Assembly (NCBI GenBank): GCA_020160755.1
Contig: JAIUPN010000002.1
Coordinates: forward strand, 62,001 to 126,000
DNA: 64,000 nt
DNA from: Pseudomonadota bacterium
GTDB lineage: Bacteria > Pseudomonadota > Alphaproteobacteria > Sphingomonadales > Sphingomonadaceae
Reading direction: 5' to 3'
Of the stretch, positions 45,798 through 63,764 are shown piece after piece. Under the pieces are notes generated by a model. It was not told the origin of the DNA. It made no database searches and saw nothing but the letters and a program-made list of their open reading frames with translations. The translations under genes were made by a program, and so were the position numbers. Numbering within the stretch: position 1 is the stretch's first letter; every line of letters starts with the position of its first letter.

Positions 45798-47288
45798 CTA
45801 CCGCTCACGGATCACGAGTTCGGTCCCGGCATAGCGCTCCGGGCGAACATGCTCGATCCGCTGCGTCCGGCGGCTCGCCCTGTTCATGAAGGTGACTTCG
45901 ACGGTCACCGGCGTCATGGAGGCGAGGCCGAAGTGGACCGGCTGGGTGCCTTGCGAATTATAGCCTTCGCCGGTCGAGACCAGACGCGTCGCGACGATCT
46001 GGCCGGCGGCGTCGTAGAGCCGGACTTCGGCGCCCATGCGAGTGAAACGCCCCGCCTTGTCGAGGACGCGCACGGAAAGGCTGCGGCGGGCGGTTTGCTT
46101 GCCCAGATCGTTATGGAAGAGGAAATGGCCGCCGGTCGCGGTGTATCCGCGTGTGACCGAGAGATCGAGCGCGCCGTCGCGGTCATAGTCGATCCACTGG
46201 ATGCCATGATCGGCGACGTTGAGCGCCGAACCGGCGGGCAGGATGTTCTCAAAGCCCTTGCCTCCGAGGTTGCGATAGAGGCGGTTTGCGGGCTGCTGCG
46301 CGCCCGATTTGCCGGTGTAGGCGGTAACGAAGAGGTCGAGCCAACCATCATTGTCGAAATCGCCCCAGGCGGCGCCGACCGCATGATTGTCCTCCGCGAG
46401 GCCGAGCTCGGGCGCGACATTCTCGAAGCTGCCGTCGCCCTTGTTGCGGTAGAGGATATTGACGCCGTAGCTCGCGACAAACAGGTCGAGTTCGCCGTCA
46501 TTGTCATAGTCGCCGACCGCGCAGCCGACGCTGCCGTCTTCGGCCGAACGGCCGGGGCGGTCCATGCCGAGCGCGGGAGCGACGTCGACGAAGCGACTGC
46601 CGTCGTTGCGCCACAGTGCGTCGGTTGCGCCCGACTGGTTGGCGAGGAAGAGATCGAGATCGCCATCGCGGTCGTAATCGAACCAGCAGGCACCCACGGT
46701 CGGCCGCGCGTCGTCGCCCGCCTGTTCGGCGTCGACGCGCACGAAATGGCCCGCATCCTGGCGAAACAGTGCATTGGGGCCAGCGCGGTCGGCAGTAAAA
46801 AGGTCGAGGTCGCCGTCATTGTCGTAATCGACCCAGTTCGATTGCCGCGCCGAGCGTCCGGGAACGACGGGCGTGAGGTCCTGGCGGACGAAGCGGCGGC
46901 CGCTCTCATTGCGGAACAGAAGGTTGGCTTCGGTCGCCTTGGTGGCGCCGGCATAGAGATCGAACCAACCATCGCCGTCATAGTCGCCCCATGACAGCCC
47001 GCGCATCTCGGCGCCGGAGACGGGCAGGCCCATCGCGGCACCGATGCTGGTGAAATGGCCGCGGTCGTTGCGGTAGAGGCGAATTTCGCCGGTCTTGATC
47101 GACACGGCGAGGTCGAGATCGCCATCACGGTCGAAATCTGCCCAGCTGTTGGAGAGCGAGCCGGGAATGGTGAAATCGGCGGTCTGGACGGGCGCGAAGG
47201 CGGGAACGGTCGTCCCGGCCGCCCCGCCGCCGGCAATGCCGGTCGAAAGGGCGGCCCAGGACAGGATCCGCATCAGTTCATCGCGCAT
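45798..47288 (-). CDS. CRTAC1-family protein (FG-GAP/VCBS repeats, ASPIC/UnbV)
   Basis: This 496-aa exported protein has an N-terminal signal segment and at least seven repeats with calcium-binding-like cores such as WADFDRDGDLDLAV, WGDYDGDGWFDLYA and VGDYDNDGELDLFV, forming a beta-propeller. The C-terminus carries an ASPIC/UnbV-type domain (MGAEVRLYDAAGQIVATRLV). CRTAC1 proteins are often encoded beside TonB receptors and may bind ligand or act outside the cell. It starts 27 bases after the receptor gene. Confidence 0.88.
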   Translation of the reverse strand: MRDELMRILSWAALSTGIAGGGAAGTTVPAFAPVQTADFTIPGSLSNSWADFDRDGDLDLAVSIKTGEIRLYRNDRGHFTSIGAAMGLPVSGAEMRGLSWGDYDGDGWFDLYAGATKATEANLLFRNESGRRFVRQDLTPVVPGRSARQSNWVDYDNDGDLDLFTADRAGPNALFRQDAGHFVRVDAEQAGDDARPTVGACWFDYDRDGDLDLFLANQSGATDALWRNDGSRFVDVAPALGMDRPGRSAEDGSVGCAVGDYDNDGELDLFVASYGVNILYRNKGDGSFENVAPELGLAEDNHAVGAAWGDFDNDGWLDLFVTAYTGKSGAQQPANRLYRNLGGKGFENILPAGSALNVADHGIQWIDYDRDGALDLSVTRGYTATGGHFLFHNDLGKQTARRSLSVRVLDKAGRFTRMGAEVRLYDAAGQIVATRLVSTGEGYNSQGTQPVHFGLASMTPVTVEVTFMNRASRRTQRIEHVRPERYAGTELVIRER

Positions 47289-47315
47289 GATGCGGACTCC
47301 TGAGGATGGTGGGGA

Positions 47316-49790
47316 TTAGAAATCGAGCGCGATCCGGCCATAATAGTAGCCGCCATATTGACCGAACGGCCCGGCGCCATAAGGCGCGAGCCCGATGGTG
47401 TTGGCGACGGTCGTGCGGTCGGGATAGACGTCGAAAATATTATAGGCGCCCGCGGCGACCCGAAACGTCTCGGTTACGCCGTAGGAGACCTCGAGATCGG
47501 TGATCCACTTGGCGCCGAAGCTCTGGTCGTTGACGGGAAGGCCCCCGACGAGATTATCGAGCGACTTGAATTTGTCGTAGCGCGTTTCCTTGACGTTAAT
47601 CGTGAAGGGACCGGATTCGAAGTTGGCGCCGAGGATCAGCTTGGTCTTGGGAGTCGAGGTGAACCAGCCCTGCGTGCGCCGATCGAACAGGGTGAGGCCT
47701 AGGCCTGCGAGCTCGCTCGGGTTGGCTGCGATCTTCCGGATGTCGGTATCATTATAGTTGAAACCGACGCTCGTGCGCAGGCGTCCGGCGCTGCCGACGT
47801 CGAACGCATAGGTGCCGACGACATCGACGCCCCGGGTGCGGGTGTCGACGGCGTTGGTGAAGAAGCGCACCGACTGGTCACCCGAGAAGCCGTTGGCGAT
47901 CAGGATGTTCCGGATCCCCGTTCCCGACAACAGGCCGGTGAGGGTGATGCGGTCGTCGAGATCGATCTGATAGGCATCGACCGAGAGCGAGAGACCCGAC
48001 GCCGGCGTCAGCGTGAAGCCGAGGCTGTAGTTCTTCGACTTTTCGGGCTTGAGGGGCTGCGCGCCGAGCGCCTGCGCGACCGCCGAGTTCGTTTTCACGA
48101 TCTTGGTGAGCACCGGGATATAGACGCCGCCGACAAGGTTGATCGACGTCGAGGTCTGCGCGAAGTCCTGCTGCGCCAGCGAGGGCGCGCGGAAGCCGTT
48201 GCTGAACGCACCTCGCAGTGCGAGCCAGTCGGTCAGCTCATAGCGTGCGCTCACCTTGCCGCTGAAGACGCTGCCCGAGCTGTCGTCGAAATGCTCGAAG
48301 CGCCCCGCCGCGGTGACGAGGAAGCGCGGGCTGACGTCGAGCGCGAGATCGACATAGCCCGCCCAGATGTTGCGGTTCACGTCCGCGGCATCTTCGGGGG
48401 TAACGACGATCGCACCCTGCGCCCCGACCTGTGCCGGGCGCCCGGCGAGTGGGCCGGTCGGGTAGAAATAACCCCCGGCACGGTAGCTGTCGACGTCGAG
48501 CGGCTTGGTGACGTAATTCTCGTAGCGATATTCGGCACCCATCGAGACCTGAAGCGCCGTCTCGCCGCCGAGCTCGATACGGCGGGTGAGATCGAGGTTG
48601 TTGGTCCACTGGTCGAACGCCGAACTGAAGGTCTTGAACTCGGTCGGGCTCGACGGACCGATCGACGCGTTGAGCGTATTTTCGGCGCCATTCTTGGCAT
48701 AGTTGCGGCCATAAGTGCTGCTGAGATCGATGTTCCAGCCCGCAGTCTCGCCGCGAAGGCCGCCGGTGAATTGGAAGTCGGTTTCCTGCAGCGTGTAGTA
48801 AGGCGTGAAGCCGTCGGGATAGATCTGGATGATGTTCTGGTTGCTGTTCGGGCGGCGGCCGGCCTGGCCGACGCGCGCGTCGCGATAGCCGAAGGTGCCA
48901 TCCGAGTAGAAGGTGACGTTGCCGAGCGGCAGGACGAGCGTTTGCGCGACCTTGACGTCCTTCACGTCGGGGAGGCCACCTTGATAGGTGCGGCGATTGG
49001 CGGTGAGCTCGCGCGGATCGGGTACACCGCCGGCGAGCGGGAAATAAAGCGCCCCGGTTACGTCGGTGTTGCGCACGGCGGCGTTGGCCTTCTTGCCTTC
49101 GACCGACAGTGTGAACGAACCGCCGTCGCCGAGCGCGAAGCCGTGCGAGACGCTGCCCGAGATGGTCTCTCCGTCGCTGCCGCTGCCGTCTCGGCCATAG
49201 CGCTGGCCGGCTTCGAACGTCGCCTTGCCGCCCGAGTCGTTGGTTTTCAGGATGACGTTGATCACGCCCGCGATCGCATCCGAGCCATATTGCGCCGAGG
49301 CGCCATCGCGCAGGACTTCGATGCGCTCGATTGCGCTCGACGGGATGAGGTCGAGATCGACCGGGTTGCCGCCCTGCGACGTCGCGCCCGAGTTGAAGTC
49401 GATGATCGAGCTGTTGTGACGGCGCTTGCCGTTGACCAGCACGAGGACATGGACGCCCGAAAGGCCGCGAAGGCCCGCGGGGCGCGTCAGGCTGTTGAAC
49501 GACGAGCTGCCCACGGTCGTCGACTGGAACGACGGCACGAGCTGCGTCAGCGCGTCGCGCAGCTGCATGCCGCCGCCGAGCTTTTCAAGCTCTTCGCCGC
49601 CGATCACGTCGATCGGGGTCGGGCTCGAAATGACGGTACGAGCTTGGCCACGGGTGCCGGTGACGATGATTTCGGACTGGGAGGCCGTTTCACCGGCGTC
49701 GTCGGCCGGGGCATCCTGCGCGAAGGCAGGCATGGAAATGGCGGCGGCGACGCAGGACGCCCCCACCAGCAGTCTCGTATATTTTTGCAT
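47316..49790 (-). CDS. TonB-dependent receptor
   Basis: This 824-aa outer-membrane receptor has a signal peptide ending SMPAFAQD, a TonB-box-like SEIIVTGTR, a plug domain with LRGLSGVHVLVLVNGKRRHN and IERIEVLRDGASAQYGSDA, and a 22-strand-type barrel ending in the aromatic RIALDF. The ligand cannot be read from sequence. It is the third gene of an operon headed by an ECF sigma factor. Confidence 0.93.
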   Translation of the reverse strand: MQKYTRLLVGASCVAAAISMPAFAQDAPADDAGETASQSEIIVTGTRGQARTVISSPTPIDVIGGEELEKLGGGMQLRDALTQLVPSFQSTTVGSSSFNSLTRPAGLRGLSGVHVLVLVNGKRRHNSSIIDFNSGATSQGGNPVDLDLIPSSAIERIEVLRDGASAQYGSDAIAGVINVILKTNDSGGKATFEAGQRYGRDGSGSDGETISGSVSHGFALGDGGSFTLSVEGKKANAAVRNTDVTGALYFPLAGGVPDPRELTANRRTYQGGLPDVKDVKVAQTLVLPLGNVTFYSDGTFGYRDARVGQAGRRPNSNQNIIQIYPDGFTPYYTLQETDFQFTGGLRGETAGWNIDLSSTYGRNYAKNGAENTLNASIGPSSPTEFKTFSSAFDQWTNNLDLTRRIELGGETALQVSMGAEYRYENYVTKPLDVDSYRAGGYFYPTGPLAGRPAQVGAQGAIVVTPEDAADVNRNIWAGYVDLALDVSPRFLVTAAGRFEHFDDSSGSVFSGKVSARYELTDWLALRGAFSNGFRAPSLAQQDFAQTSTSINLVGGVYIPVLTKIVKTNSAVAQALGAQPLKPEKSKNYSLGFTLTPASGLSLSVDAYQIDLDDRITLTGLLSGTGIRNILIANGFSGDQSVRFFTNAVDTRTRGVDVVGTYAFDVGSAGRLRTSVGFNYNDTDIRKIAANPSELAGLGLTLFDRRTQGWFTSTPKTKLILGANFESGPFTINVKETRYDKFKSLDNLVGGLPVNDQSFGAKWITDLEVSYGVTETFRVAAGAYNIFDVYPDRTTVANTIGLAPYGAGPFGQYGGYYYGRIALDF

Positions 49791-51083: not shown

Positions 51084-51773
51084 TCAGATGGAATTGGAGA
51101 GGAGTTTCTGCCGCTGCGGCGACACGCCGTTGCGATGTGCCGCGACGAGATCGCTGCGGCGGACGACCGAGAGCGCCTTGGCGGCCTTGGTCACATGTTT
51201 TTCGATGGCGCTCGTCGAGATGTTGTAGCGGTTCGCGAGGCTCTTCAGGCTCGACCCCTCGACCCGGATCGCGACGAGGATTTCCTGCGTCCGCTCGGGG
51301 AGCTGGCTGAGCATGGTCTCGACAGCGCGGACCTCATCCTTGGCGAGCAGGATGCGCAGCGGCGACATCTCGTCGACCGGATGGTCGGGCTCGTCGAGCT
51401 GGCAATGGCAGTCGCTGCGGCGCGTCGTCTGGCGGCGGTGGCGGTCGATGAGCGCGGCCTGCGCAGCCTGGAACAGATAGCATTTGGGATGGGCGACCGC
51501 GGCGGCATCGGCGCGGCGAATGATGCTGAGGAGAACATCCTGGAGAATGTCGTCGAGGTCGGCGACCGGGACGCGGCGGCGGAGATATTTCCTGAGCAGC
51601 GGGAGGTGCGGCCAGAAAGCTTCGACAAGATCGGGCGCGGCGTTGTCGGACGGCAAAGCGGGAGGGGCCGGCGGCTTTTCCGGAGGTGGAGCGATAAGTT
51701 CGAACGTCTGCCAGCCATCGCCGGCCGTGACGTTTTCAGTCTCATACTCGGCCCCATAGGCACTGAATGTCAT
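51084..51773 (-). CDS. ECF-type RNA polymerase sigma factor (FecI-like)
   Basis: This 229-aa protein carries sigma-70 region 2 (VADLDDILQDVLLSIIRR) and region 4 (LPERTQEILVAIRVEGSSLK followed by ISTSAIEKHVTKAAKAL), the FecI pattern. About 45 extra residues precede region 2 and are Pro-rich. No FecR anti-sigma gene lies beside it, so control must be by another route. AAGGGGA precedes the ATG. It heads the operon with the PLP enzyme, TonB receptor and CRTAC1 gene. Confidence 0.88.
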   Translation of the reverse strand: MTFSAYGAEYETENVTAGDGWQTFELIAPPPEKPPAPPALPSDNAAPDLVEAFWPHLPLLRKYLRRRVPVADLDDILQDVLLSIIRRADAAAVAHPKCYLFQAAQAALIDRHRRQTTRRSDCHCQLDEPDHPVDEMSPLRILLAKDEVRAVETMLSQLPERTQEILVAIRVEGSSLKSLANRYNISTSAIEKHVTKAAKALSVVRRSDLVAAHRNGVSPQRQKLLSNSI

Positions 51774-52089
51774 CGTGCGTCCCCTTGTGACGACATTTTA
51801 TGACATGGATGCCGGGATGAATTCATCACCGACTTTGGCGGGAATTTGACGAATGTTGGGATATTTGAACCGATAATTCGGTATTTGGTCGATCAAATGA
51901 TCGAAATCCTACATGAACAATGTCGGTCCGGTCGAATCATCTGTCCCGGAGTCGCCTCGGAACTGCAACATTTGGTGAGGGGCCGCAAAACTTCCTCGCG
52001 GAATCGCGCTTTGGGCGATGGGGTGTTCGGTTCGTAGCGCGTCAAAGCCAAGGGGCCTCCCGCATCGGGGAGGCAGGAGGAGTGATCGC
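51774..52089. promoter_or_regulatory. Divergent regulatory region with two palindromes
   Basis: These 316 bases hold no supported gene and separate the sigma-factor operon from the symporter-Lrp operon. The middle is AT-richer. Two palindromes lie close together: ACCGA/TCGGT at 51869-51882 and TCGATCA-AA-TGATCGA at 51889-51904; the latter overlaps a second dyad, ATTTG/CAAAT, at 51883-51898. They could bind the nearby Lrp-type regulator. GGCAGGAGGAG precedes the symporter start. Confidence 0.6.
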
Positions 52090-53415
52090 ATGGCGAGAAC
52101 CTGGCTTATTTTGTCGGCGCTGGTCGCTGGACTGGCGCTGGGCGTGGGATGGACGCGGCTCGGGCTCGCCGGTCTCATCGATGCGGTAACGATTGCGGAC
52201 AGCATCGGCGGTATCTGGCTCGACGGACTCAGAATGACGATCATCCCGCTCGTCGTCTCGCTCCTGATCACCGGGATCGCAAAGACGGTCGATAGCGCGC
52301 GCGGCGATCGCGTCGCGATGCGCTCGGTCGTCACGTTCATTGCGCTGCTATGGATTTCGACCGCGATGGCGGCGCTCCTCATTCCCGCGCTGCTCGGTAT
52401 CTTCCCGATGCCGGCCGACGCCGCGCGCTCGCTCACGGGGAGCCTTACGACATCGGCCCATGTCGAGGCGCCAACGGTCGGGATTGCCGCCTTCCTCCGC
52501 TCGATCGTACCGACCAATCCGTTTGCCGCGGCCGCGAACGACGCGCTTCTTCCGCTCATCCTCTTCACCGCGGTCTTTGCGGTTGCGCTGGCGCGGCTGC
52601 CCGCGGTGCAGCGCGAGCCGGTGACCGCATTCTTCGACACGATCGCGAGCGCGGTGCTGCTCATCGTCGGCTGGGTGCTCGCGCTCGCGCCGATCGGCGT
52701 GCTCGCGCTGGCCTTCGGGGTTGGCGCGCGCGCCGGCACCTCGGCGATCGGCGCGCTCGCCCATTATGTCGTGATCGTGTCGAGCGCCGGGCTTGCCGCC
52801 TGGGCGCTCGCCTATCCGGTCGCGGTATTCGGTGGCCGCGTGCGTCTTCTCACCTTCGCGAAGGCGGTCGCACCCGCGCAGGCGGTCGCGCTCAGCACCC
52901 AGTCGTCGCTCGCCTCCTTGCCGCCGATGCTGAAGGCATCGACCGATCTCGGGGTCGACCGCTCGGTGTCGCGCGTATCGCTGCCGGTCGCGGTCGCGAT
53001 CTTCCGCGTTACGAGCCCGGCGATGAACCTCGCGGTCGCCATCTATGTCGCGCACTGGCTTGGCATATCGCTCGCGCCGTCCACGATCGCGGCGGGCGCC
53101 GCGGTGGCAGCGATCACGACGATCGGGTCGGTGAGTCTGCCTGGACAAGTGAGCTTTCTGACCTCGATCGCGCCAATCTGCGTCGCGATGGGTATTCCGA
53201 TCGAGCCGCTCGCCCTGCTGATCGCGGTCGAGATGATCCCCGATCTCGTGCGGACGGTTGGCAATGTAACCATGGATGTCGCTGCGACGACGGCGATCGC
53301 ACGGATGGGGCCGGCGTCGGATGCCGTCAGTGAGGGCGCCGATGGATATGGAGGCGGCGAGGATGACGCCTCGCCGCGACCCGCGCCTTCTTTCGTTGGC
53401 GCGCAAGACGTTTGA
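52090..53415 (+). CDS. Dicarboxylate/amino acid:cation symporter (DAACS family)
   Basis: This 441-aa inner-membrane transporter has eight or more helices and two re-entrant loops. Family signatures are LRMTIIPLVVSLLITGIAK, the serine-rich hairpin ALSTQSSLASLP and FRVTSPAMNLAVAIYVAH. DAACS proteins import glutamate, aspartate, serine or dicarboxylates with sodium or protons. ATG 52090 follows a strong AGGAGGAG site. The Lrp-type gene follows after 12 bases. Confidence 0.88.
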   Translation: MARTWLILSALVAGLALGVGWTRLGLAGLIDAVTIADSIGGIWLDGLRMTIIPLVVSLLITGIAKTVDSARGDRVAMRSVVTFIALLWISTAMAALLIPALLGIFPMPADAARSLTGSLTTSAHVEAPTVGIAAFLRSIVPTNPFAAAANDALLPLILFTAVFAVALARLPAVQREPVTAFFDTIASAVLLIVGWVLALAPIGVLALAFGVGARAGTSAIGALAHYVVIVSSAGLAAWALAYPVAVFGGRVRLLTFAKAVAPAQAVALSTQSSLASLPPMLKASTDLGVDRSVSRVSLPVAVAIFRVTSPAMNLAVAIYVAHWLGISLAPSTIAAGAAVAAITTIGSVSLPGQVSFLTSIAPICVAMGIPIEPLALLIAVEMIPDLVRTVGNVTMDVAATTAIARMGPASDAVSEGADGYGGGEDDASPRPAPSFVGAQDV

Positions 53416-53427: not shown

Positions 53428-53907
53428 ATGACCCGCGTTTCACTCGACGATGCCGACGTCCGGATCCTGGGATTTCTTCAGGAGGATGCGACGCTCTCGG
53501 TCGCGGCCGTCGCCGCCAAGGCCAATATGTCGCAGAATGCTTGCTGGCGGCGGATCAAGCGGCTCGAGGAAAGCGGGGTGATCTCGCGGCGCGTCACGAT
53601 CCTCGACGCCAGTGCGCTCGGTCTCGACCTTACGGTCTTCGTGAGCCTGCGCGCTTCCGAGCATAGCGAAGCCTGGCTCGAGATGCTCAACTCGGCGATT
53701 CGCGACATTCCGGAGGTCGTCGAATTCTACCGGATGACCGGCGACGTCGATTATCTGCTCAAGCTCAGGGTCGAGAATATGGCCGCCTATGACGCGGTCT
53801 ACCGGCGCATCATCCGGTCGATCCGGCTCACCGATGTGAGCTCGGCCTTTTCGATGGAAGAAATCAAGTTCACCACCGCGCTGCCGCTCACGGCGCGCCC
53901 GTCCTGA
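53428..53907 (+). CDS. Lrp/AsnC-family transcriptional regulator
   Basis: This 159-aa protein has an N-terminal HTH (LDDADVRILGFLQEDATLSV then SQNACWRRIKRLEESGVI) and a C-terminal RAM domain with VVEFYRMTGDVDYLLKLRV that binds amino acids. It probably senses an amino acid brought in by the symporter encoded just upstream and controls this locus. GAGGAAAACC precedes the ATG. Confidence 0.92.
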   Translation: MTRVSLDDADVRILGFLQEDATLSVAAVAAKANMSQNACWRRIKRLEESGVISRRVTILDASALGLDLTVFVSLRASEHSEAWLEMLNSAIRDIPEVVEFYRMTGDVDYLLKLRVENMAAYDAVYRRIIRSIRLTDVSSAFSMEEIKFTTALPLTARPS

Positions 53908-55183: not shown

Positions 55184-56650
55184 TCATTCCTCCCCGACCG
55201 GTTGGCCGATTTCAAAATCGCTTCGGTAGCGCGTGGCGGGATCGCTCGTGTCGAGAACGAGCGCGCCGTCGATGAAGACCTTCTCGGCGATGGCGTAGAC
55301 GCTGAACGGATTCTTGCTCCACAGCACGACGTCGGCCATCTTGCCCGGCTCGAGCGAGCCGGTCTTGTCGGCAATGCCCATGATCTTCGCGGGATTGAGG
55401 GTGATCCACTTGATCGCCTCCTCCTGCGGAATGTCGATCCCCGCGCGGCGCCCGGCGGCGATCGCGACCGCACTTTCGACGTTGAGGCGCTGGATCAGTC
55501 GCTGCTCGTCCGAATGGATCGCAACGCAGACGCCCGCCTTGCTCAGGATCGCGGCATTTTCCTCGATCGCGTCATAGGCTTCCATCTTGAAGCCCCAGCG
55601 CGTCGCCCAGGTCGCGACGCAGACATCGTCGGCGACGAGCAGGTCGGCGATCTTGTAAGCCTCGACCGCATGGTGAAAGGCGCGCGTCTTGTAGCCGAAC
55701 TCGTGGCCAACATCGAGCATCACCGCCATTTCGTCGGCGCGGTAGCAATGGTTCTGAACGAGGATGTCGCCCTTCAGCACGCCCGCAAGCGTTTCGAGCC
55801 CGAGGTCGCGCTTGGGCGCCTCGCCGCCTTCGCCGCGCGCGCGCTTCTTTTCATAGGCATCGACCTTGCGGCCATATTCGGCGGCGTCGATCCAGGCGCG
55901 GCGGAAGCCCGCGACTTCGCCCATGCGCGTGGCGGGGGCGCGGCCGCGGCTGCCGTAGCGACCTTTCGGATTCTCGCCGCAAGCCATTTTCAGCGTGTAG
56001 GGCGCGCCCGGGAATTTCATCTGCTGGACGGTCACCGCGGGTACATTCTTCACGCTCACGCCGCGGCCGCCGAAGAGGTTGGCCGAACCCGGCAGGATGA
56101 GCAGGCTGGTGACCCCGCCGGCGCGGGCCTTGGTAAATACGGGATCCTGCGGCCAGATCGAATGCTCGGCCCAGACATGCGCGGTATAGGGGTCGATATT
56201 TTCGTTGCCGTCGGCGTGACCCTGGACGCCGGGCGCCGGGAAGACGCCGAGGTGCGAGTGGGCGTCGATGATGCCGGGGGTGACCCACTTGCCGCGCCCG
56301 TCAATGACGCGCGCGCCCGAAGGGACGGCGACATCGGCGCCGACCGCGACGATCTTGCCTGCCGCCATCAGCACGGTGCCATCGTCGATCCGAGTGCCGG
56401 TGCCGGTCAGGATCGAGGCGCCGACGATTGCCGTGTCGGCGGCGGGACGCGGTTGGTAGGTGCTCGCGAACGGTGCGGGCGCCGGCGCTGCCGCCGGTTC
56501 CGCGGGCGGCGGCGGGGTGCTGGCAGGACGCGCCGGAGAGACGTCGGCGGCGCAGCCCGCGAGAAGGGCGAGCGCGGTGCCGAGAAGCGCGGCTCGCGCG
56601 GCGCGGCGGCCGCGAGCCGGGGAGATGGTGTCGAAGAAATGTCGTGTCAC
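55184..56650 (-). CDS. Amidohydrolase, lipoprotein, imidazolonepropionase-like
   Basis: This 488-aa enzyme has a lipoprotein signal with lipobox LAGC (C33), a Pro/Ala-rich linker and an amidohydrolase TIM barrel. Metal ligands are visible: H131 and H133 in DAHSHLG, H301 in QNHCYRADE, H326/H327, and D381 in IHSDEQ. It would hydrolyse a cyclic amide, imide or peptide-like bond in the periplasm. It directly precedes the degenerate paralogue and the two probably act together. Confidence 0.9.
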   Translation of the reverse strand: MTRHFFDTISPARGRRAARAALLGTALALLAGCAADVSPARPASTPPPPAEPAAAPAPAPFASTYQPRPAADTAIVGASILTGTGTRIDDGTVLMAAGKIVAVGADVAVPSGARVIDGRGKWVTPGIIDAHSHLGVFPAPGVQGHADGNENIDPYTAHVWAEHSIWPQDPVFTKARAGGVTSLLILPGSANLFGGRGVSVKNVPAVTVQQMKFPGAPYTLKMACGENPKGRYGSRGRAPATRMGEVAGFRRAWIDAAEYGRKVDAYEKKRARGEGGEAPKRDLGLETLAGVLKGDILVQNHCYRADEMAVMLDVGHEFGYKTRAFHHAVEAYKIADLLVADDVCVATWATRWGFKMEAYDAIEENAAILSKAGVCVAIHSDEQRLIQRLNVESAVAIAAGRRAGIDIPQEEAIKWITLNPAKIMGIADKTGSLEPGKMADVVLWSKNPFSVYAIAEKVFIDGALVLDTSDPATRYRSDFEIGQPVGEE

Positions 56651-56736: not shown

Positions 56737-59700
56737 TCAGAAAGTCTTGCGGACGTTGACGTACCAGTAGCGCGGGATCGGCGAATGAAGCGAACCCATG
56801 TAGCCGAAGCCGCTCGAATCAATCGGCGGTTGCGCATTGGTAATGTTGCGAACCCCGACACGCAGTTGGGTTCCATCGGTGAACCCGCCTTTAAGGTCAT
56901 ACTGCACATACAGGCTCGCGGTGGTGTACGCCTTTACGATCAGGTTTTCTCCGCCGATCGAAATGTCGTTGTCGATGACGCTGCCGGTGTAGCTTACAAA
57001 GCCGCCGGCCGTGAATTGCCCAAGCTTCCAGGTAAGCGAGGCCGAGCCGCGCCATTTTGGGAAGGCGTCGCGGCGAACCTGATTACCGCCTTCCGGAATG
57101 ACCGTGTCGATGTTGATGTCGCCCGCCGCGCGCGCATCGAGCAGGACCCGGATGTCAGGGGACACGTCGCGGAAATATTTGAGCAGATAGGCCGCGTTGG
57201 CGGACATGGTGAAATCGCCGATTCCCGTGTCGCGAAGCCCGACGTTGAGCCCGAAATCGATCCCGCGCACCGTCTGTGGTTCCAGGTTGCGATACTGGTC
57301 GTCGACATATTGCACCCGACCGACCGGTGCGATGCCAGTCCCGGCGAACAATGCGATATCGTCGGCAGTCGGCGCCAGGCGGACCACGGTGGGATCGCTC
57401 GACCCCTGAAGGCGGAGGAGATAATCGCTGATGAGCGCGTTGCCTTCGCCGAATACGCCGACGATGCCCTTCTGCTTGACCTGCCAATAGTCCACCGTGA
57501 AGGTGGTGCGGAGTCGGCCGGTATTGAAGGCCGGCGGCTGGAGCACAGTACCGATCGTCCAGGTGGTCGAGGTTTCCGGCTTCAGGTCGGGGTTGCCCGC
57601 GCGCCGTCCGGTGGTAACAAAACCTTGGGCGCAAGCGTCGAAGCTGGTGATGCGGCCCGCGCGCAAATCGGCCTCGCAGCGGATATAATCGGTCCGCGTA
57701 TTGCCGCGTGTGATGATCGTTGCCTTGGTCTGCTCGAGGTTCGGCGCGCGGAAGCCTTGCGCCCACGAGCCGCGGATTCGCCAGCCATCGAAGAGGTCCC
57801 AAGCGGCGGCCACCTTGGGTTTCGCGATGCTGCCGAAATCCGAATAATGCTCGTAGCGGCCCGCCAGCTGTAGCTCGAGGCTGCGAATGAGCGGAACATT
57901 CATTTCGGGCGCGATCAGTGGCACGGCCAGTTCGGAGTAGGCAGCGAAAACCGTGCGCGAGCCCTTGGTGTCGGGGGTCGGGCTGACGCCGAACAAGTCG
58001 GATGGCTGGACAATACCGGTGACCGTGTCTGTCCAGGTGATTGTTCCGTCGACGCGCTCGTCGCGGTCGTCGAGATAGGAATCGCGACGCAGCTCAAAGC
58101 CAAGCGCCATGCCGACGTTGCCGGCGGGCAACGTCAGAAGATCGGCCTTCGATGCCCGAAAATCCCACTGCGCCAGCGTAGATTTGCCCGCGCGAACAGT
58201 CTTGATCGCGATAGCGTCGAGAGCGGCCTGATTGCTAGGTGTCGTGTCGGGACCGGTCGGATTGGTCGCGCTGCCGCCATTGAACGGATTATAGGCATCG
58301 GGCGTCGAGAGCGCGAGGCTTTGCTGGAGAAGCGTGGCGCTGATCCCATCCTGAACATCGCGGACCGTTGCTTGCGAATAGAGCGCCGCCGTCTCCCAGT
58401 TGAAACCGAGCGCCTCGCCGCGAAGCCCCAGCAATGCCCGGAACTGGCGGTTGGTGACATCGACGACGGTTGGTCCCATGTCCACAAAACGATAGCTTGT
58501 GATCGTCACCGGCAGGCCGGCGGCGGGCGCGTCGATCCCCGCGAGGCGGTTCGGGTTTAACGTGCCATTGGCGAAGGTTACGGGGCCAAAGGGGTTCCAG
58601 TAGTTGGACGCCGGCACCGTCATCTGGATCGAACCGATCGAGAAGACGCTGTCCTGGATGCTCCGCGTCTTGGCATAATAATAGCCGGCTTCGCCGAAGA
58701 CGGTCAGATTGTCGCTGAGGTCATAGTGGCCGTTCGCGAACACGTTGACACGATCCAGCCGGGGAATAATCGAAAGCGGATAATTGGCTTGGGCGTCCCA
58801 CCTTGTGTTGCGATCAGCGCCGGTCGTGGCACGCGTCGCATCATCGATACAGATCCCGCCCCCCAGATCGGCCGAGCAGCCGCCATTTGCTGTCGGCTGG
58901 ATCGAAAACACCCCGCCCGTGGTCGTGATATTGGTCGTTCCGCGGCGTACGCGAACGCCGGTGGTGAAATTGCCCCACTGGGACAAAGTGCTGGTGTCGT
59001 CCAAGCTGTTCGAGCCAGCGAACACTGTCCCCGCGAAATCGTCGAAGAAGCGGTGATCGGATGTCGCGGTATAATCCTGGTCCTGTGAGGACAGCGCCGT
59101 GCGGTTGGTGTAGTTGAACAGCAGCGAAATATTGCCGCGATTCTCGGCGAAGTCGGTGCCGAGATAACCTGAGCCGTTGAATTCGCGCAGCCCCGTTCCC
59201 TCTGCTCCGCCATATTGGACCGACAAACCGCCGCCGTTCACATTGTCGCGAAGGATGGTGTTGACCACGCCCGCCACGGCGTCGGTGCCATAGAGGGCTG
59301 CCGCGCCGTCGCGGAGCACTTCGACGCGCTGGATACCGAAGACCGGGATTGAGTTGCTATTATAGGTGATGACCGGCGCCAGCGACGTGCTCGCCTGGCT
59401 GCTTGGGTGCTGCACAAGCCGGCGCCCGTTGAGCAGGACCAGCGTGTTGCCGACTCCCAGTCCGCGCAGATCGATGGACCCGACGTCGCCGCGCGCGAAA
59501 TTGCTGCTCGTCTGACCATTGCTGCTGTTGAACGACTGGTCGCTCATTTGCGGGATCGACCGCAACAGTTCGTCGCCCGACACCGCAGCGGTCGCCGCAA
59601 TCTCGTCCTCGCCGACCACGGTTACGGGCAAGGCTTCGGTGATCTTGGTGCCAGCGATGCGACTGCCGGTCACGACGATTTCTTCGCCGCGGGGAGCCGT

Positions 59701-59832
59701 TTGCGGCTCGGTCGCGGCCTGGGTCTCCGCCGCCTGTTCCTGGGCGGCCGCGTTTTGTGCGGCGATCATTCCGATCAGCGATGCTGCGGCGAGAATATGC
59801 TTGCGGTAGTTCGAATATGTGCGGTTCGTCAT
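56737..59832 (-). CDS. TonB-dependent receptor, large
   Basis: This 1031-aa receptor has a signal peptide ending NAAAQEQ, a TonB-box-like EEIVVTGSRIAGTKI, the plug motifs LRGLGVGNTLVLLNGRRLV and IQRVEVLRDGAAALYGTDA, and a barrel ending in YVNVRKTF. Such long receptors in sphingomonads often take up peptides or oligosaccharides; the ligand is not known. ATG 59832 is preferred to the frame's earlier start because the signal peptide follows it. It precedes the amidohydrolase pair. Confidence 0.92.
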   Translation of the reverse strand: MTNRTYSNYRKHILAAASLIGMIAAQNAAAQEQAAETQAATEPQTAPRGEEIVVTGSRIAGTKITEALPVTVVGEDEIAATAAVSGDELLRSIPQMSDQSFNSSNGQTSSNFARGDVGSIDLRGLGVGNTLVLLNGRRLVQHPSSQASTSLAPVITYNSNSIPVFGIQRVEVLRDGAAALYGTDAVAGVVNTILRDNVNGGGLSVQYGGAEGTGLREFNGSGYLGTDFAENRGNISLLFNYTNRTALSSQDQDYTATSDHRFFDDFAGTVFAGSNSLDDTSTLSQWGNFTTGVRVRRGTTNITTTGGVFSIQPTANGGCSADLGGGICIDDATRATTGADRNTRWDAQANYPLSIIPRLDRVNVFANGHYDLSDNLTVFGEAGYYYAKTRSIQDSVFSIGSIQMTVPASNYWNPFGPVTFANGTLNPNRLAGIDAPAAGLPVTITSYRFVDMGPTVVDVTNRQFRALLGLRGEALGFNWETAALYSQATVRDVQDGISATLLQQSLALSTPDAYNPFNGGSATNPTGPDTTPSNQAALDAIAIKTVRAGKSTLAQWDFRASKADLLTLPAGNVGMALGFELRRDSYLDDRDERVDGTITWTDTVTGIVQPSDLFGVSPTPDTKGSRTVFAAYSELAVPLIAPEMNVPLIRSLELQLAGRYEHYSDFGSIAKPKVAAAWDLFDGWRIRGSWAQGFRAPNLEQTKATIITRGNTRTDYIRCEADLRAGRITSFDACAQGFVTTGRRAGNPDLKPETSTTWTIGTVLQPPAFNTGRLRTTFTVDYWQVKQKGIVGVFGEGNALISDYLLRLQGSSDPTVVRLAPTADDIALFAGTGIAPVGRVQYVDDQYRNLEPQTVRGIDFGLNVGLRDTGIGDFTMSANAAYLLKYFRDVSPDIRVLLDARAAGDINIDTVIPEGGNQVRRDAFPKWRGSASLTWKLGQFTAGGFVSYTGSVIDNDISIGGENLIVKAYTTASLYVQYDLKGGFTDGTQLRVGVRNITNAQPPIDSSGFGYMGSLHSPIPRYWYVNVRKTF

Positions 59833-60010
59833 GCCATGTCCCCTTGTTTCGACCCGATCGGCGCGTCGTCCTCCGTGCGGCGGATGGATTTCTCCCCATC
59901 TCGTCTCGCTATGACGCAAGTTATCGACGTATCCCCATCAACATTGGCGCAGAAAATTACAACCTTTTGCACTACAGCGAAATTTTCCAGTTTCTGCCGC
60001 CTGGCGCCGT
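59833..60010 (-). promoter_or_regulatory. Leader region of the large TonB receptor gene
   Basis: These 178 bases lie between ridA and the receptor gene on the same strand. The stretch next to ridA (about 59940-60000) is AT-richer than its surroundings. A separate promoter for the receptor-amidohydrolase genes probably lies here, but no -35/-10 pair is convincing. Confidence 0.35.
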
Positions 60011-60472
60011 TCAGGCCAGTTCGATCACCGCATCGACCTCGACCGCGAAGTTGAACGGCAGACGGTAAACGCCGATCGCCGAGCGGGCATGTTTTCCGGC
60101 TTCGCCGAACACGTCGACGATGAGGTCCGAGCAGCCATTCATTACGGCCGGGATCTCGTAGAATTCGGGACCTGCCTGGACGTAACCGCCGAGCCGGAGA
60201 ACGCGAGCAACGCGGTCGAGATCGCTGTCGGCGGCCGCCTTGAATTGCGCGATGAGATTGATCGCGCAGAGCCGCGCGGCAATGATGCCGTCGGCGAGGC
60301 TGCAGTCGGCGCCGACGGTGCCCTTGATCCCGCCGCTGGCATGGGTCGAGAGCTGGCCCGAGATCTGGACGATATTGCCAGAGCGCGTCGATGATACATA
60401 GTTTGCGACGGGCGGGCAGACCTGGGGCAGTTCGATCCCGAGACTGGCGAGACGGCTTTCGATACGTGACAT
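60011..60472 (-). CDS. RidA/YjgF family protein
   Basis: This 153-aa protein matches the larger RidA subfamily, with VSSTRSGNIVQISGQLS at the start and DLDRVARVLRLGGYV in the centre. RidA enzymes deaminate reactive enamine/imine intermediates that PLP enzymes release. A PLP lyase-like gene is encoded about 9 kb away in the same locus, which makes a linked role plausible. AAGGAG precedes the ATG, two bases after the symporter stop. Confidence 0.9.
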   Translation of the reverse strand: MSRIESRLASLGIELPQVCPPVANYVSSTRSGNIVQISGQLSTHASGGIKGTVGADCSLADGIIAARLCAINLIAQFKAAADSDLDRVARVLRLGGYVQAGPEFYEIPAVMNGCSDLIVDVFGEAGKHARSAIGVYRLPFNFAVEVDAVIELA

Positions 60473-60474: not shown

Positions 60475-61761
60475 TCACTCCTTGGCTGTGAGAGAGGGTA
60501 GTTGTTCGGCGGGTGCGGGCGTGCCGGCAGCGGCTTCGCTCGCCATGCGGCGACCCTCCCAGCGGTCGATGACCGCGGCGGCGACCGAATTGCCGACGAC
60601 GTTGGTCGCCGAGCGGCCCATGTCGAGCAGATGGTCGACCGCGAGGATCAGGAGCAGCCCGGCCTCGGGCAGTTTGAAGTAGGCGAGTGTCGCCGAGATC
60701 ACGACGAGCGACGCACGCGGGACGCCCGCCATGCCTTTCGACGTCACCATGAGCAGGAGCAGCATGGTGATCTGCTGGCCGATGGTCATGTCGATGCCAT
60801 AGGCCTGCGCGATGAAGAGCACGGCGAAGGTGCAATACATCATCGAGCCGTCGAGATTGAAGCTGTAGCCGAGCGGCAGGACGAAGGAGACGATGCGGCG
60901 GTTGACGCCCTGCTTCTCGAGCTCCTCCATCGTCTTCGGATAGGCGGCTTCCGAGCTGGCGGTCGAAAAGGCGAGGAGCACCGGAGTGCGGATGCCGCGG
61001 AACAGTCCGAAGGCGCGCGTGCCGATGATCGCGAGCGCGGCGAGGAAAAGCACAAGCCAGAGCGCGCCGAGCGAGAGATAGAAGCCCGAGACGAAGCCCG
61101 CATAGGTCACGAGGACGCCGGGGCCCTGCGTCGCGACGGTCGAGGCGAGCGCGGCGAAGATTGCGACCGGGGCGGTCTTCATCACGAAGCCGGTTACCTT
61201 GAGCATGATCGCGGCGACCTGCTCGACGAGGGCGAGCACGGCGGGAGCCTTGTCGTCGATGGCGGCCACCGCCGAGCCGACGAGGACCGAGAAGACGACG
61301 ATCTGGAGGATCTCGTTCTCGGCCATCGCCTGGACGATCGATTGCGGGATGAGGTGGGTGACGAATTGCTTGAGCGAGAAATCGCCGGTCGCGACGACGC
61401 CTTCAGCGCCGGTTGTCGGCAGGTCGAGCGCAAGGCTCGCGCCCGGCTGGAGCAGGTGGACCATGACGAGCCCGATCGAGAGCGACACGATCGAGGCCCC
61501 GATGAACCAGCCCATCGTCTTCGCGCCGACGCGGCCGATCGCGGCGGCGTCTTCCATATGCGCGATCCCAGCAACGAGGGTCGCGAAGACGAGCGGCGCG
61601 ATGATCATCTTGATGAGCCGCAGAAAGAGGTCGGTAAGGATCGAGAGATTGTCGGCGATTTCGGCGGCTCTTGCGGCCGGGTAATGCGAATTCACGAACC
61701 AGCCCGCCGCAATCCCGGCGACCATGGCGAAGATGAGGATGAAGGCGAAAGCTCTGTTCAT
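60475..61761 (-). CDS. Dicarboxylate/amino acid:cation symporter (DAACS family), second
   Basis: This 428-aa transporter shows all DAACS signatures: LFLRLIKMIIAPLVFATLVAG, the serine-rich AFSTASSEAAYPKTM, YSFNLDGSMMYC, and VDHLLDMGRSATNVVGNS. It is closer to classical GltP/DctA than the other symporter at 52090. It likely imports an acidic or neutral amino acid or dicarboxylate released by periplasmic hydrolysis. ATG 61761 gives the usual length. RidA follows directly. Confidence 0.92.
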   Translation of the reverse strand: MNRAFAFILIFAMVAGIAAGWFVNSHYPAARAAEIADNLSILTDLFLRLIKMIIAPLVFATLVAGIAHMEDAAAIGRVGAKTMGWFIGASIVSLSIGLVMVHLLQPGASLALDLPTTGAEGVVATGDFSLKQFVTHLIPQSIVQAMAENEILQIVVFSVLVGSAVAAIDDKAPAVLALVEQVAAIMLKVTGFVMKTAPVAIFAALASTVATQGPGVLVTYAGFVSGFYLSLGALWLVLFLAALAIIGTRAFGLFRGIRTPVLLAFSTASSEAAYPKTMEELEKQGVNRRIVSFVLPLGYSFNLDGSMMYCTFAVLFIAQAYGIDMTIGQQITMLLLLMVTSKGMAGVPRASLVVISATLAYFKLPEAGLLLILAVDHLLDMGRSATNVVGNSVAAAVIDRWEGRRMASEAAAGTPAPAEQLPSLTAKE

Positions 61762-61964
61762 GACTGTCCCGTTCCGGCTTCGCCCCGGCCGGGGCGTACA
61801 GGAAGCAGAGACGCAAGTGCGGCGCGGTTCCGCAGCAGCAATGCGGTCGACAAGCGCATATTGTTGCGACATGGCGGGCGCGGACCGAACAGGCTGGTGG
61901 GGATATCTACCGCCGCTGCGTCAAAGCAGGGCAGGGCGACAATCAGACAATCGAGGAGACGCGC
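61762..61964. promoter_or_regulatory. Divergent promoter region between symporter and amidohydrolase 3
   Basis: These 203 bases separate two divergent transcripts and should hold both promoters. No clear palindrome or consensus promoter was found by eye. GAGGAGACGC at the right edge is the ribosome-binding site of the amidohydrolase. Confidence 0.4.
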
Positions 61965-63764
61965 GTGGCCAGTTTTCGGAAGATGATCGTAGCGGGAACG
62001 GCGCTCGCCGCCGGCCTTGGCTGGGCGAGCCAGTCGGTACTCGCCGAACCGGGCGGCGAGCTGGTCGCGATCACCGGCGCGACGATCTTCGATGCCACGG
62101 GCAAGGATCCCTATCGCGGCACCGTCGTCGTGCGGGATGGCCGGATCGATGCGGTCGGAGCTGACGTCAAGGCTCCCAAGGGCGCGAAGATAGTGCGTGC
62201 CGACGGCAAGGCGCTGCTCCCGGGCTTCATCGACGTCCATACGCACTGGTCGCCGTCGGGCTCGCCCGCCGCGCTGCCGCAGATCGCCAACGCTTACCTC
62301 TCGAGCGGCGTGACGACCGTGAACGACTTCCACCAGCAGCCCGAAGCCTTCGCGCCGCGCCGCGCCTGGCTCGCCGACATCTACGCGCCGCACGTCAACT
62401 TCGTCGCGCGCATGAGCACGCCGGGCGGCCACGGCGCCGACTGGGGTGACACCAATACCACCAAATGGGTCGCGACCGCCGAGAGCGCGCGGCGCGAGGT
62501 GCAGGCGCTCCAGCCCTATCGCCCCGACTATATCAAGGCTTTCGCCGACGGCTGGCGCTACGGCCAGCTGCCCGAGGAAACCTCGATGAACGTCGAGACC
62601 CTCGCCGCACTCGCCGACGAGGCGCACAAGCATGGCCAGCGCGTGCTCACTCATACGGTGACCGTCGAACGCGGCAAGCTCGCCGCCGACGCCGGCATCG
62701 ACGTGATCGCGCACAGCATCCAGGACGGCGTGCTCGATGCCGACGCGATCGCCCGGATCAAGAAGGCGGGCACCTTCTACGCCCCGACGCTCGCCATCTA
62801 TCAGCTGAAGCCCGACGAGATCGGCCCCGGGCGCAAGGACGATGCCGCGACGCGCCTGCGCATTCGCAAATATGGCTTCGCCGAAGAGAATGTCCGCAAT
62901 CTCCACGCGGCCGGCGTCACGATCGCGGTCGGGACCGACGCGGGGATCGGCGGTGCGAAGCACGGCGTCTCGACGCTCCAGGAAATGGAATTGCTCGTTG
63001 CGGCTGGCCTCACGCCGAAGGCGGCGCTGCTCGCGGGCACGTCGAATAGCGCGCTCGCGCTCGGACTTTCGGCCGACCGCGGCACGATCGAGAAGGGCAA
63101 GCGCGCCGATCTTGTGCTCATCGACGGCAAGCCGTGGGAAGCGATCGGCGATGTCGAGAAGATCGACCGTGTTTTCGTCGACGGCAAGCTCGTCCATGGC
63201 GCCGGGGTGAAGCTGCCCGCGGGCAACCTCGCCACGACGCTCCCGGCGTTGCCCGCCGAGGCGCTGATCGACGATTTCGAACGCGCCGATGGACGGAGCT
63301 CGCTCGACACGCTCCGCCTCACCGACATGGATGGCGGCGTCGAGCGTTCCTCGGTGGTCACCAACCGCGTGACCCACGCGGGCGGCGACGGCTCGGCGCT
63401 TGCCTTCGCGGTGCAGATGTCGCTCAAGGACAAGCCCGAGGGCGGCATCCTCGTGCCCTTGAGCCGTGGTTCGGTCCGTCCGGTCGATGCGCGCAAGTTC
63501 GCAGGCGTCCGGCTCGATATGCGCGGCGCCGGCCGCTATCTCCTCGTGGTCAACACGCTCGCAGGCGAATTCACCGCGCCGATCGAAGCGAAGGAAGGCT
63601 GGTCCGAGCTGCGCGTGCCCTTCTCCGCGCTCGTGGCGACGCGCCCCGGCCGCGGCGATGCGCCGTCCTGGCGCGGCGACGATCTCGTGCAGGTCGGTGT
63701 CGTCGTCCAGCGCGAGGCGGGCGCAAGTTCATGGGGCGAAATCGACAATCTTCGCTTTTACTGA
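61965..63764 (+). CDS. Exported amidohydrolase with C-terminal CIA30-like domain
   Basis: This 599-aa protein starts with GTG after GAGGAGACGC. A signal peptide ends near SVLAEPG. The amidohydrolase barrel shows H92/H94 in DVHTHW, later HTVTVERG and AHSIQDG, and the aspartate in VGTDAGIGG, so its metal site is intact. From about residue 425 a second domain follows (FERADGRSSLDT to WGEIDNLRFY) that resembles the CIA30/galactose-binding-like fold found at the end of some amidohydrolases. Substrate is unknown. It diverges from the symporter-RidA operon. Confidence 0.9.
   Translation: MASFRKMIVAGTALAAGLGWASQSVLAEPGGELVAITGATIFDATGKDPYRGTVVVRDGRIDAVGADVKAPKGAKIVRADGKALLPGFIDVHTHWSPSGSPAALPQIANAYLSSGVTTVNDFHQQPEAFAPRRAWLADIYAPHVNFVARMSTPGGHGADWGDTNTTKWVATAESARREVQALQPYRPDYIKAFADGWRYGQLPEETSMNVETLAALADEAHKHGQRVLTHTVTVERGKLAADAGIDVIAHSIQDGVLDADAIARIKKAGTFYAPTLAIYQLKPDEIGPGRKDDAATRLRIRKYGFAEENVRNLHAAGVTIAVGTDAGIGGAKHGVSTLQEMELLVAAGLTPKAALLAGTSNSALALGLSADRGTIEKGKRADLVLIDGKPWEAIGDVEKIDRVFVDGKLVHGAGVKLPAGNLATTLPALPAEALIDDFERADGRSSLDTLRLTDMDGGVERSSVVTNRVTHAGGDGSALAFAVQMSLKDKPEGGILVPLSRGSVRPVDARKFAGVRLDMRGAGRYLLVVNTLAGEFTAPIEAKEGWSELRVPFSALVATRPGRGDAPSWRGDDLVQVGVVVQREAGASSWGEIDNLRFY

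What the first reader, a model, noticed from the sequence alone, without database searches (positions are those of the whole stretch)
45798..63764. Candidate undescribed uptake and degradation system for a cyclic or peptide-like nitrogen compound
Fourteen neighbouring genes combine two TonB receptors, two DAACS symporters, three exported amidohydrolases, RidA, a PLP C-S enzyme, a CRTAC1 protein, an ECF sigma factor and an Lrp regulator. Together they describe a route: outer-membrane uptake, periplasmic ring or amide opening, import of the amino acid, PLP cleavage, and RidA removal of reactive imines. I know of no named system with this full set.
Basis: inference. Interest (0 to 1): 0.7.

Follow-up and report, generated by a model that had tools for sequence, protein, structure and literature searches.

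The report
Self-regulated amide and peptide scavenging island
Twelve neighbouring genes in a Sphingopyxis bacterium are inherited as one block and share a promoter-like DNA signature that is almost absent from the rest of the genome and that the block's own sigma factor is predicted to read, so the block is likely a single switchable system for taking up and cutting a still unidentified peptide or amide nutrient.

Summary
The gene set is real, but holds 12 genes with a family match, not 14. It behaves as one unit: orthologues of AH1 and of CBL, CRTAC1 and the ECF sigma factor (probes from two of the four same-strand gene runs) occur in exactly the same 12 of 80 Sphingopyxis genomes; gene order is kept in 10 of 11 relatives, the eleventh being split by contig ends. 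New here: a bipartite promoter-like motif, TGGGG-N15-GCGTCA, correctly oriented upstream of DAACS1-Lrp, TonB2-AH2-AH1 and AH3. It occurs 4 times in the 4.3-Mb genome, 3 of them here; in the genus the fuller motif gives 39 hits, 36 of them the three expected copies in each of the 12 island genomes. The island's ECF factor is the likely reader (inferred). AH1 has lost the metal-binding histidines and is probably a non-catalytic partner of AH2. The substrate is most likely a peptide or N-acyl amino acid: the resident paralogue of the AH pair sits beside an oligopeptide symporter, and several relatives add a fourth amidohydrolase and peptidase genes behind a variant of the motif. The C-S lyase's role, substrate and inducer are unknown. 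New variant of a known kind.

The parts
45798..47288 (-). CRTAC1 family protein (FG-GAP repeats, ASPIC/UnbV domain), likely exported
   Evidence: Pfam PF13517, PF07593; orthologue in 12 of 80 genus genomes
47316..49790 (-). TonB-dependent receptor 1 (TonB1)
   Evidence: Pfam PF00593, PF07715
49864..51069 (-). Cystathionine beta-lyase type PLP enzyme (CBL), an accessory copy; a paralogue about 51% identical is elsewhere in the genome
   Evidence: TIGR01324 above cut-off; island orthologue in 12 of 80 genomes; YGR, SLTK and SWGG motifs kept (their meaning is recalled)
51084..51773 (-). ECF sigma factor, no anti-sigma gene among the island genes; predicted reader of the shared motif
   Evidence: Pfam sigma-70 regions 2 and 4; orthologue (79-100%) in the same 12 of 80 genomes, next best 37%
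51816..51830 (.). Palindromic GATGAATTCATCACC upstream of the ECF operon; candidate operator (Lrp site is a guess)
   Evidence: form varies in relatives, not found as such in G355; near-matches in the window are no more than chance
52019..52044 (+). Shared motif copy 1, TGGGG-N15-GCGTCA, facing DAACS1-Lrp
   Evidence: ends 45 bases before the start at 52090
52090..53415 (+). DAACS1, SDF-family symporter; lacks the NMDG motif, keeps D..R...N
   Evidence: Pfam PF00375; (motif names recalled); start refined
53428..53907 (+). Lrp/AsnC family regulator
   Evidence: Pfam PF01037, PF13404; 97-100% identical in L050-L060, 94% in L013, 80% in G355
53935..55182 (-). AH1, amidohydrolase-fold protein without the metal-binding histidines; likely non-catalytic partner of AH2
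   Evidence: HxH replaced by NxA; first His kept in 0 of 120 listed homologues; start 1 nt after the AH2 stop
55184..56650 (-). AH2, amidohydrolase with metal-ligand pattern intact; N-terminus looks like a lipoprotein (by eye)
   Evidence: Pfam PF07969; best PDB match 3ooq; HxH kept
56737..59832 (-). TonB-dependent receptor 2 (TonB2)
   Evidence: Pfam PF00593, PF07715; start
59912..59937 (-). Shared motif copy 2, facing TonB2-AH2-AH1
60011..60472 (-). Rid family protein (YjgF_endoribonc), RidA-like
   Evidence: Pfam PF14588, PF01042; best PDB match 3d01; not at the locus in L013 and G355
60475..61872 (-). DAACS2, SDF-family symporter resembling aspartate/glutamate carriers (start possibly 61761)
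   Evidence: Pfam PF00375; best PDB match aspartate transporter 9bgz; not at the locus in L013 and G355
61898..61923 (+). Shared motif copy 3, facing AH3
61965..63764 (+). AH3, amidohydrolase with C-terminal CIA30-like domain, likely exported dipeptidase or carboxypeptidase
   Evidence: Pfam PF01979; CIA30 match below its curated cut-off; PDB relatives 8ihq, 3mtw; HxH and GTD kept
63853..63878 (+). Variant motif copy 4, TGGGG-N15-GCGTCT; in several relatives it precedes an AH4 (amidohydrolase) operon that is missing here

Best explanation
These twelve genes are one co-inherited island, and three of its predicted transcription units carry the same bipartite promoter-like motif, which the island's own ECF sigma factor is predicted to read, so that outer-membrane uptake, amide-bond cutting outside the cytoplasm and amino-acid import would likely switch on together to feed on a peptide or N-acyl amino acid. 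Proposed steps: the Lrp-type regulator senses an amino acid and controls the ECF operon (inferred, weak). The sigma factor then transcribes DAACS1-Lrp, TonB2-AH2-AH1 and AH3, and in several relatives an AH4 operon (motif shown; its reading by this sigma factor inferred). TonB1 and TonB2 bring the compound through the outer membrane; AH2 with its inactive-looking partner AH1, and AH3, release amino acids (inferred from family). DAACS2, which resembles aspartate/glutamate carriers, and DAACS1 import them (inferred). CBL breaks a C-S bond or otherwise acts on one released amino acid, and RidA clears the reactive enamine (inferred, weakest; RidA and DAACS2 are optional).
For: One unit: orthologues of AH1, CBL (52), CRTAC1 (95) and ECF (118) in the same 12 of 80 genus genomes; 10 of 11 relatives hold all 12 genes in the same order and orientation, the eleventh (G166) is split over two contigs that together hold them; G355 in another genus keeps 9 of 12 together, rearranged, with AH4-M14 following. 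One regulon: TGGGG-N15-GCGTCA 4 times in the genome, 3 in the island, reversed control 0; 1 of 2000 shuffles of the three upstream regions gave any shared 5+6-base word at equal spacing of 12-19; fuller motif: 36 of 39 genus-wide hits are the island's, control 0 in all 80; in G355, whose ECF is 44% identical, the motif stands before TonB2 and, as GCGTCT, before AH3. Peptide or amide substrate: paralogous AH pair beside an oligopeptide:H+ symporter in the own genome and in Qipengyuania citrea; some relatives add M14, M20 and creatininase-family genes; AH3's best PDB relatives include an arginine carboxypeptidase, 3mtw. AH1 inactive.
Against: No substrate, inducer or transcript was measured. The ECF operon and DAACS2-RidA lack the motif, so the sigma factor's own control is open. 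The motif consensus was built from the same promoters that the genus scan then found; absence elsewhere is the informative part. The simple core alone has background hits in most genomes (59 of 80 have at least one). In L013 the DAACS1 copy reads ACGTCA. G181, G177 and G188 carry one further copy of the fuller motif with identical sequence, the last two without the ECF orthologue. G224 has AH4-M14 with a variant motif but no ECF, AH1, CBL or CRTAC1 orthologue. RidA and DAACS2 are not at the locus in L013, nor they and DAACS1 in G355. A POT symporter was seen near the AH pair in 4 of 11 non-island loci, one of them the query locus itself and one at 31% identity, and in 0 of 11 island loci. AH1 and most homologues (101 of 120) still show Asp at the column of the last metal ligand, so loss of the site is not total.
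Confidence: 0.6

Rival explanations
1. One reading: the system opens a cyclic nitrogen compound (hydantoin, diketopiperazine, pyroglutamyl peptide) with exported amidohydrolases and then degrades the amino acid with the C-S lyase and RidA.
For: Amidohydrolase fold, Rid and PLP enzymes are present.
Against: D-hydantoinase (37-41 bits against 393), dihydroorotase and allantoinase models are far below cut-off; one of the three amidohydrolases lacks the metal-binding histidines; genes added in some relatives include M14 and M20 peptidases and an MFS carrier. RidA and DAACS2 are missing from the locus in two relatives.
Confidence: 0.1
2. Sulfur scavenging: the compound is a sulfur-bearing peptide or cysteine S-conjugate; the island's lyase is the key enzyme, freeing a thiol or sulfide, pyruvate and ammonia via 2-aminoacrylate, which RidA clears.
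For: CBL is a retained, accessory paralogue in the sigma-factor operon, conserved in G355; in the ten island genomes whose right flank was read, an MBL-fold gene and a TauE-type (sulfite exporter) gene lie right of the island, from about 0.2 to 11 kb after AH3.
Against: The MBL-TauE pair also adjoins AH4-M14 in G224, which lacks the island, so it may simply be the chromosomal neighbour; no other sulfur gene was recognised in the island; CBL-fold enzymes can do other chemistry (racemase, recalled); RidA is not conserved with CBL.
Confidence: 0.2
3. The shared motif is an operator for Lrp or another regulator rather than an ECF promoter; the ECF factor serves other genes.
For: Lrp is in one of the motif-led units and is among the best conserved island proteins; the ECF operon itself lacks the motif; G177 and G188 have one copy each without the ECF orthologue.
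Against: Two unlike boxes at a fixed 15-base spacing, always in the direction of the gene and 41-79 bases before its start, fit a sigma promoter better than a symmetric Lrp site; three island copies go with the ECF orthologue in 12 of 12 genomes.
Confidence: 0.2
4. Four unrelated operons that merely lie together.
For: Each family is common by itself; related modules occur separately, for example CRTAC1-TonB-ECF-FecR-penicillin amidase in Sphingobium sp. V4.
Against: Probes from those two runs occur in the same 12 of 80 genomes; nine genes kept together in another genus after rearrangement; shared motif.
Confidence: 0.06

Closest known systems
FecI/FecR/FecA-type ECF systems for TonB-receptor genes
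   Same: An ECF sigma factor is encoded beside TonB receptors and probably controls one of them.
   Different: No FecR anti-sigma gene and no signalling domain on either receptor; the FecI model is missed (49.9 bits against 260); the likely targets include hydrolases and symporters.
ong cluster for oxidised chitin in Pseudoalteromonas (PMC9537276, passages read)
   Same: Per those passages: two transporters, a D-aminoacylase-type enzyme, a D-amino acid deaminase type enzyme and a RidA-family protein, upregulated together on the substrate.
   Different: MurR/RpiR regulator, beta-hexosaminidase and sugar kinase there; hydrolysis by OngB is cytoplasmic; no ECF factor, CRTAC1, DAACS or Lrp in the eight genes listed.
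cog1228 prolidases and carboxypeptidases of the amidohydrolase superfamily (Xiang 2009, 2010; titles seen in the reference list of PMC13081902; substrates recalled)
   Same: AH3 has the solved member Cc2672 (3mtw) among its best PDB matches and keeps HxH and GTD.
   Different: Here in a sigma-factor island; AH3 has a CIA30-like extension and misses the curated Xaa-Pro dipeptidase cut-off (137.5 against 500).
Sphingobium sp. V4 plasmid locus (NZ_CP081002.1, L017)
   Same: CRTAC1 (62%), TonB1 (43%) and ECF (31%) relatives beside an amide hydrolase and a carrier.
   Different: Has a FecR-domain gene, a penicillin-amidase family protein (PvdQ model below cut-off) and an MFS carrier in place of the amidohydrolases and DAACS.
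Thermotoga amidohydrolase 3ooq (organism recalled)
   Same: Best PDB relative of both AH2 (244 bits) and AH1 (86 bits).
   Different: Single protein with intact ligands; here a duplicated pair, one member without the metal-binding histidines.

Membership tests
FecI/FecR/FecA cell-surface signalling | FecR-type anti-sigma gene next to the ECF gene | tested here: not met
   No FecR match among the 12 proteins
FecI/FecR/FecA cell-surface signalling | N-terminal signalling (secretin/STN) domain on the TonB receptor | tested here: not met
   Only Plug and barrel domains on both receptors
FecI/FecR/FecA cell-surface signalling | FecI-family sigma factor by curated model | tested here: not met
   NF041727 49.9 bits, cut-off 260
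ECF sigma factor (general) | Sigma-70 regions 2 and 4 only | tested here: met
   PF04542 and PF08281 above cut-off; TIGR02937 62.5 against 42.9
ECF regulon of this sigma factor | Shared promoter motif limited to genomes with the factor | tested here: met
   36 of 39 hits in the 12 ECF genomes' islands; 66 of 68 genomes without the factor have none, two have one each
ECF regulon of this sigma factor | Factor transcribes from the motif | not testable with these tools
   Needs a transcription assay
Hydantoin or cyclic-ureide utilisation | Hydantoinase, dihydroorotase or allantoinase family membership | tested here: not met
   Models matched only far below curated cut-offs
ong cluster | Beta-hexosaminidase, KdgK kinase, MurR/RpiR regulator | tested here: not met
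   None among the 12 proteins
Cystathionine beta-lyase (TIGR01324) | Model score above cut-off | tested here: met
   486 bits against 365.9; physiological substrate untested
Catalytic amidohydrolase (AH2, AH3) | HxH and further metal ligands | tested here: met
   HxH present in AH2 and AH3, GTD in AH3; beta-5 and beta-6 His and beta-8 Asp positions of AH2 read from its alignment with 3ooq
Catalytic amidohydrolase (AH1) | HxH and further metal ligands | tested here: not met
   Among 120 listed homologues first His 0, second His 0, beta-5 His 1, beta-6 His 0; Asp at the beta-8 column remains in 101
Bacteroidetes-style SusC/SusD locus | SusD-like lipoprotein and SusC-type receptor | tested here: not met
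   No SusD match among the 12 proteins; SusC/RagA models below cut-off
mlr microcystin degradation genes (recalled) | mlrA, mlrB, mlrC, mlrD | not tested
   No genome-wide search was made

The most novel reading that the evidence does not exclude
A self-contained, co-inherited nutrient regulon: an ECF sigma factor without an anti-sigma partner, with its own nearly genome-unique promoter code (GRTGGGG-N14-YGCGTCANNGC), drives a dedicated outer-membrane-to-cytoplasm line for amide nutrients whose periplasmic enzyme is a two-subunit amidohydrolase, one catalytic (AH2) and one a conserved partner without a working metal site (AH1).
Probability: 0.4. Interest if true: 0.68.

Novelty: new variant of a known kind. 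Interest (0 to 1): 0.55.

Why it matters
Sphingomonads carry many TonB receptors and exported amidohydrolases of unknown substrate (general knowledge). Here a sequence-level regulatory signature names the likely members of one such system, ties it to one sigma factor, and makes the unknown substrate testable by a simple induction experiment. It also points to a class of amidohydrolase gene pairs in which one partner has lost its metal-binding histidines, a clue to two-subunit enzymes that annotation calls 'amidohydrolase family protein' twice.

Tried and rejected
Rejected: a further gene at 44268-45785 (antisense ORF). Rejected: a simple TGCGTCANAGC box as the marker; alone it occurs 7 times in the genome against 8 for the control pattern, so only the two-box form with fixed spacing is specific. 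Rejected as part of the system: the MBL-TauE genes right of AH3; in some relatives a larger set (M20, IclR, ketopantoate reductase, SDR, polysaccharide deacetylase-like, AH4, MFS, M14, creatininase-family; complete in G171, G173 and G166) lies between, and G224 has MBL-TauE without the island. The GATGAATTCATCACC palindrome before the ECF operon was not enriched in the window and is not found as such in G355: kept only as a guess. A looser motif scan of non-island AH-pair loci gave only scattered single hits. Literature: searches listed no paper that, by title and start of abstract, describes this set (open-access library only); I read passages of PMC9537276 and PMC13081902, the rest as search listings. 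No tRNA and no Rfam match at gathering threshold in the window.


Full report
What is there. The window lies at C2:62001-126000 of a 4.3-Mb genome of 20 contigs; named loci nearest to it are from Sphingopyxis and a Sphingomonadaceae bacterium (the genome itself is unnamed). Between 45798 and 63764 there are twelve genes with a family match: CRTAC1, TonB1, CBL and ECF on the minus strand; DAACS1 and Lrp on the plus strand; AH1, AH2, TonB2, Rid and DAACS2 on the minus strand; AH3 on the plus strand.

One co-inherited block. I asked the same 80 genus genomes for four proteins, three from the ECF run and one (AH1) from the TonB2 run. Orthologues were found for AH1 in 12 of 80 (89-100% identity), CBL in 12 of 80 (91-100%), CRTAC1 in 12 of 80 (81-100%) and ECF in 12 of 80 (79-100%), and the 12 are the same genomes each time. 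The other genes were not probed genus-wide. More distant paralogues of AH1 (mostly 40-46%) and of CBL (about 51%) exist in nearly all genomes, so the island copies are accessory. Of the 11 relatives, 10 show all twelve genes in the same order and orientation; G166 is split over two contigs that together hold them. A MAG labelled Altererythrobacter (L013) has AH3 directly beside TonB2, without Rid and DAACS2 at the locus. In a sample of 397 family genomes, AH1 at E <= 1e-105 occurred in 4: the own genome, G355 (71%), and G328 and G370, which carry a different tandem type at 53-57%. G355, in another genus, has AH3, TonB2, AH2, AH1, CRTAC1, TonB1, CBL, ECF (44%) and Lrp together but rearranged, with AH4 and M14 following; DAACS1, DAACS2 and Rid were not found in the 46 kb of that contig that I read. 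Co-retention after rearrangement argues for a common function.

One regulon. Aligning the upstream regions across relatives (output partly cut) showed a GCGTCA element in each, and 15 bases before it TGGGG. The spacer sequences differ between the three promoters, the spacing does not. TGGGG-N15-GCGTCA occurs 4 times in the whole genome, 3 times in this 18-kb island, each facing DAACS1, TonB2 or AH3; the backward control has 0. In the window a weight matrix gives these three 42, 42 and 29 bits, the next best 6.9 (the matrix was trained on them and their orthologues). Shuffling the three upstream regions produced any shared 5+6-base word at equal spacing in 1 of 2000 trials. Across 80 genomes the fuller motif gave 39 hits: three in each of the 12 island genomes, all in the island, and one identical sequence each in G177, G181 and G188; the control gave none. 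The simpler core has background hits (59 of 80 genomes have at least one), so the fuller form is the useful one. In L013 two copies are exact and the DAACS1 copy reads ACGTCA. In G355 the motif stands before TonB2, and a GCGTCT form before AH3. The ECF operon and DAACS2-Rid have no copy.

Which protein reads it. Two unlike boxes at a fixed distance, one direction, 41-79 bases before the start codons, is what an ECF promoter looks like (established knowledge), and the three copies go with the island ECF gene in 12 of 12 genomes, while 66 of 68 genomes without the gene have no copy. That the factor reads the motif is inference; no transcription was measured. There is no FecR gene among the twelve and no signalling domain on the receptors, so the FecIR mode of activation does not seem available. 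How the sigma factor is switched on is open; Lrp acting on the ECF promoter is a guess.

A fourth promoter and a lost operon. A GCGTCT form of the motif lies beyond AH3 in 9 of 9 genomes examined for it, the own one included (ten loci), and an exact form in G166; G176 and G198 were not examined. In G166, G168, G171, G173 and G202 it precedes AH4; of these five, four also have M14, four a creatininase-family gene and three an MFS gene. AH4 orthologues (84-100%) are found in 6 of the 12 island genomes and in G224, which lacks ECF, AH1, CBL and CRTAC1 orthologues. In the window's genome, G172, G181 and G206 the motif now faces an MBL-fold gene. I read this as loss of the AH4 operon.

AH1 is not a normal amidohydrolase. 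AH1 and AH2 both match 3ooq best, and AH1 starts one base after the AH2 stop. In AH1 and the 120 homologues listed (best of 3788 at E <= 1e-20; one is probably the window's own) the HxH pair is gone: first His in 0 of 120, second in 0 of 120, beta-5 His in 1 of 120, beta-6 His in 0 of 120, while Asp stands at the beta-8 column in 101 of 120. AH2 keeps all these positions. The pairing recurs in other loci. AH1 is therefore likely a structural or regulatory subunit of AH2 (inferred).

Substrate. The resident AH pair of the same genome lies beside an oligopeptide:H+ symporter (TIGR00924, 366.5 bits against 130.2), as does a pair in Qipengyuania citrea; in all, 4 of 11 non-island AH-pair loci had a symporter homologue, counting the query locus and one at only 31% identity, and 0 of 11 island loci. 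DAACS1-like genes accompany the non-island pair in 3 loci (L065, L067, L069). AH3's best PDB matches are 8ihq, named only 'amidohydrolase family protein' (an ochratoxin hydrolase as I recall), and relatives including the arginine carboxypeptidase 3mtw. DAACS2's best PDB match is an aspartate transporter. I therefore prefer a peptide or N-acyl amino acid, at about 55%; a sulfur-bearing one is possible because of CBL. A cyclic compound has no specific support.

Novelty. Open-literature searches listed no description of this set; closed journals are not covered. The parts are known families; the combination, its nearly genome-unique promoter-like code and the amidohydrolase partner without metal-binding histidines make it a new variant of ECF-linked TonB nutrient systems.

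Noticed in passing
window 1997-13317: Type IV secretion and conjugation genes (coupling protein, T2SSE-type ATPase, TrbE/VirB4-like, TrbL-like).
   Followed up: no
window 33400-43503: Heavy-metal efflux block left of the island (CusA/CzcA RND pump, P-type metal ATPase, second RND pump); found next to the island in G172, G181 and G189, 3 of the 7 left flanks compared.
   Followed up: partly
window 19590-21752: Protein with FTR1-type iron permease and cytochrome c domains.
   Followed up: no
L017 (Sphingobium sp. V4 plasmid) 11779-21401: Related module: CRTAC1, TonB receptor, ECF, FecR-domain protein, penicillin-amidase family protein and an MFS carrier.
   Followed up: partly
L061-L064, L099, L100: Tandem double AH2-AH1 pairs, with an M16 peptidase gene nearby in L061, in other sphingomonads; no TGGGG-N15-GCGTC site in these six loci.
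   Followed up: partly
G177:C82:6006, G181:C1:4004683, G188:C12:6137: One further copy of the full motif with identical sequence, two of the three in genomes without the ECF orthologue; what it precedes was not looked at.
   Followed up: no
window 51774-51830 and L098 near 17130: GACATTTTATGACA just upstream of the ECF gene is conserved in most relatives aligned and in G355, suggesting the ECF gene's own promoter or operator.
   Followed up: partly
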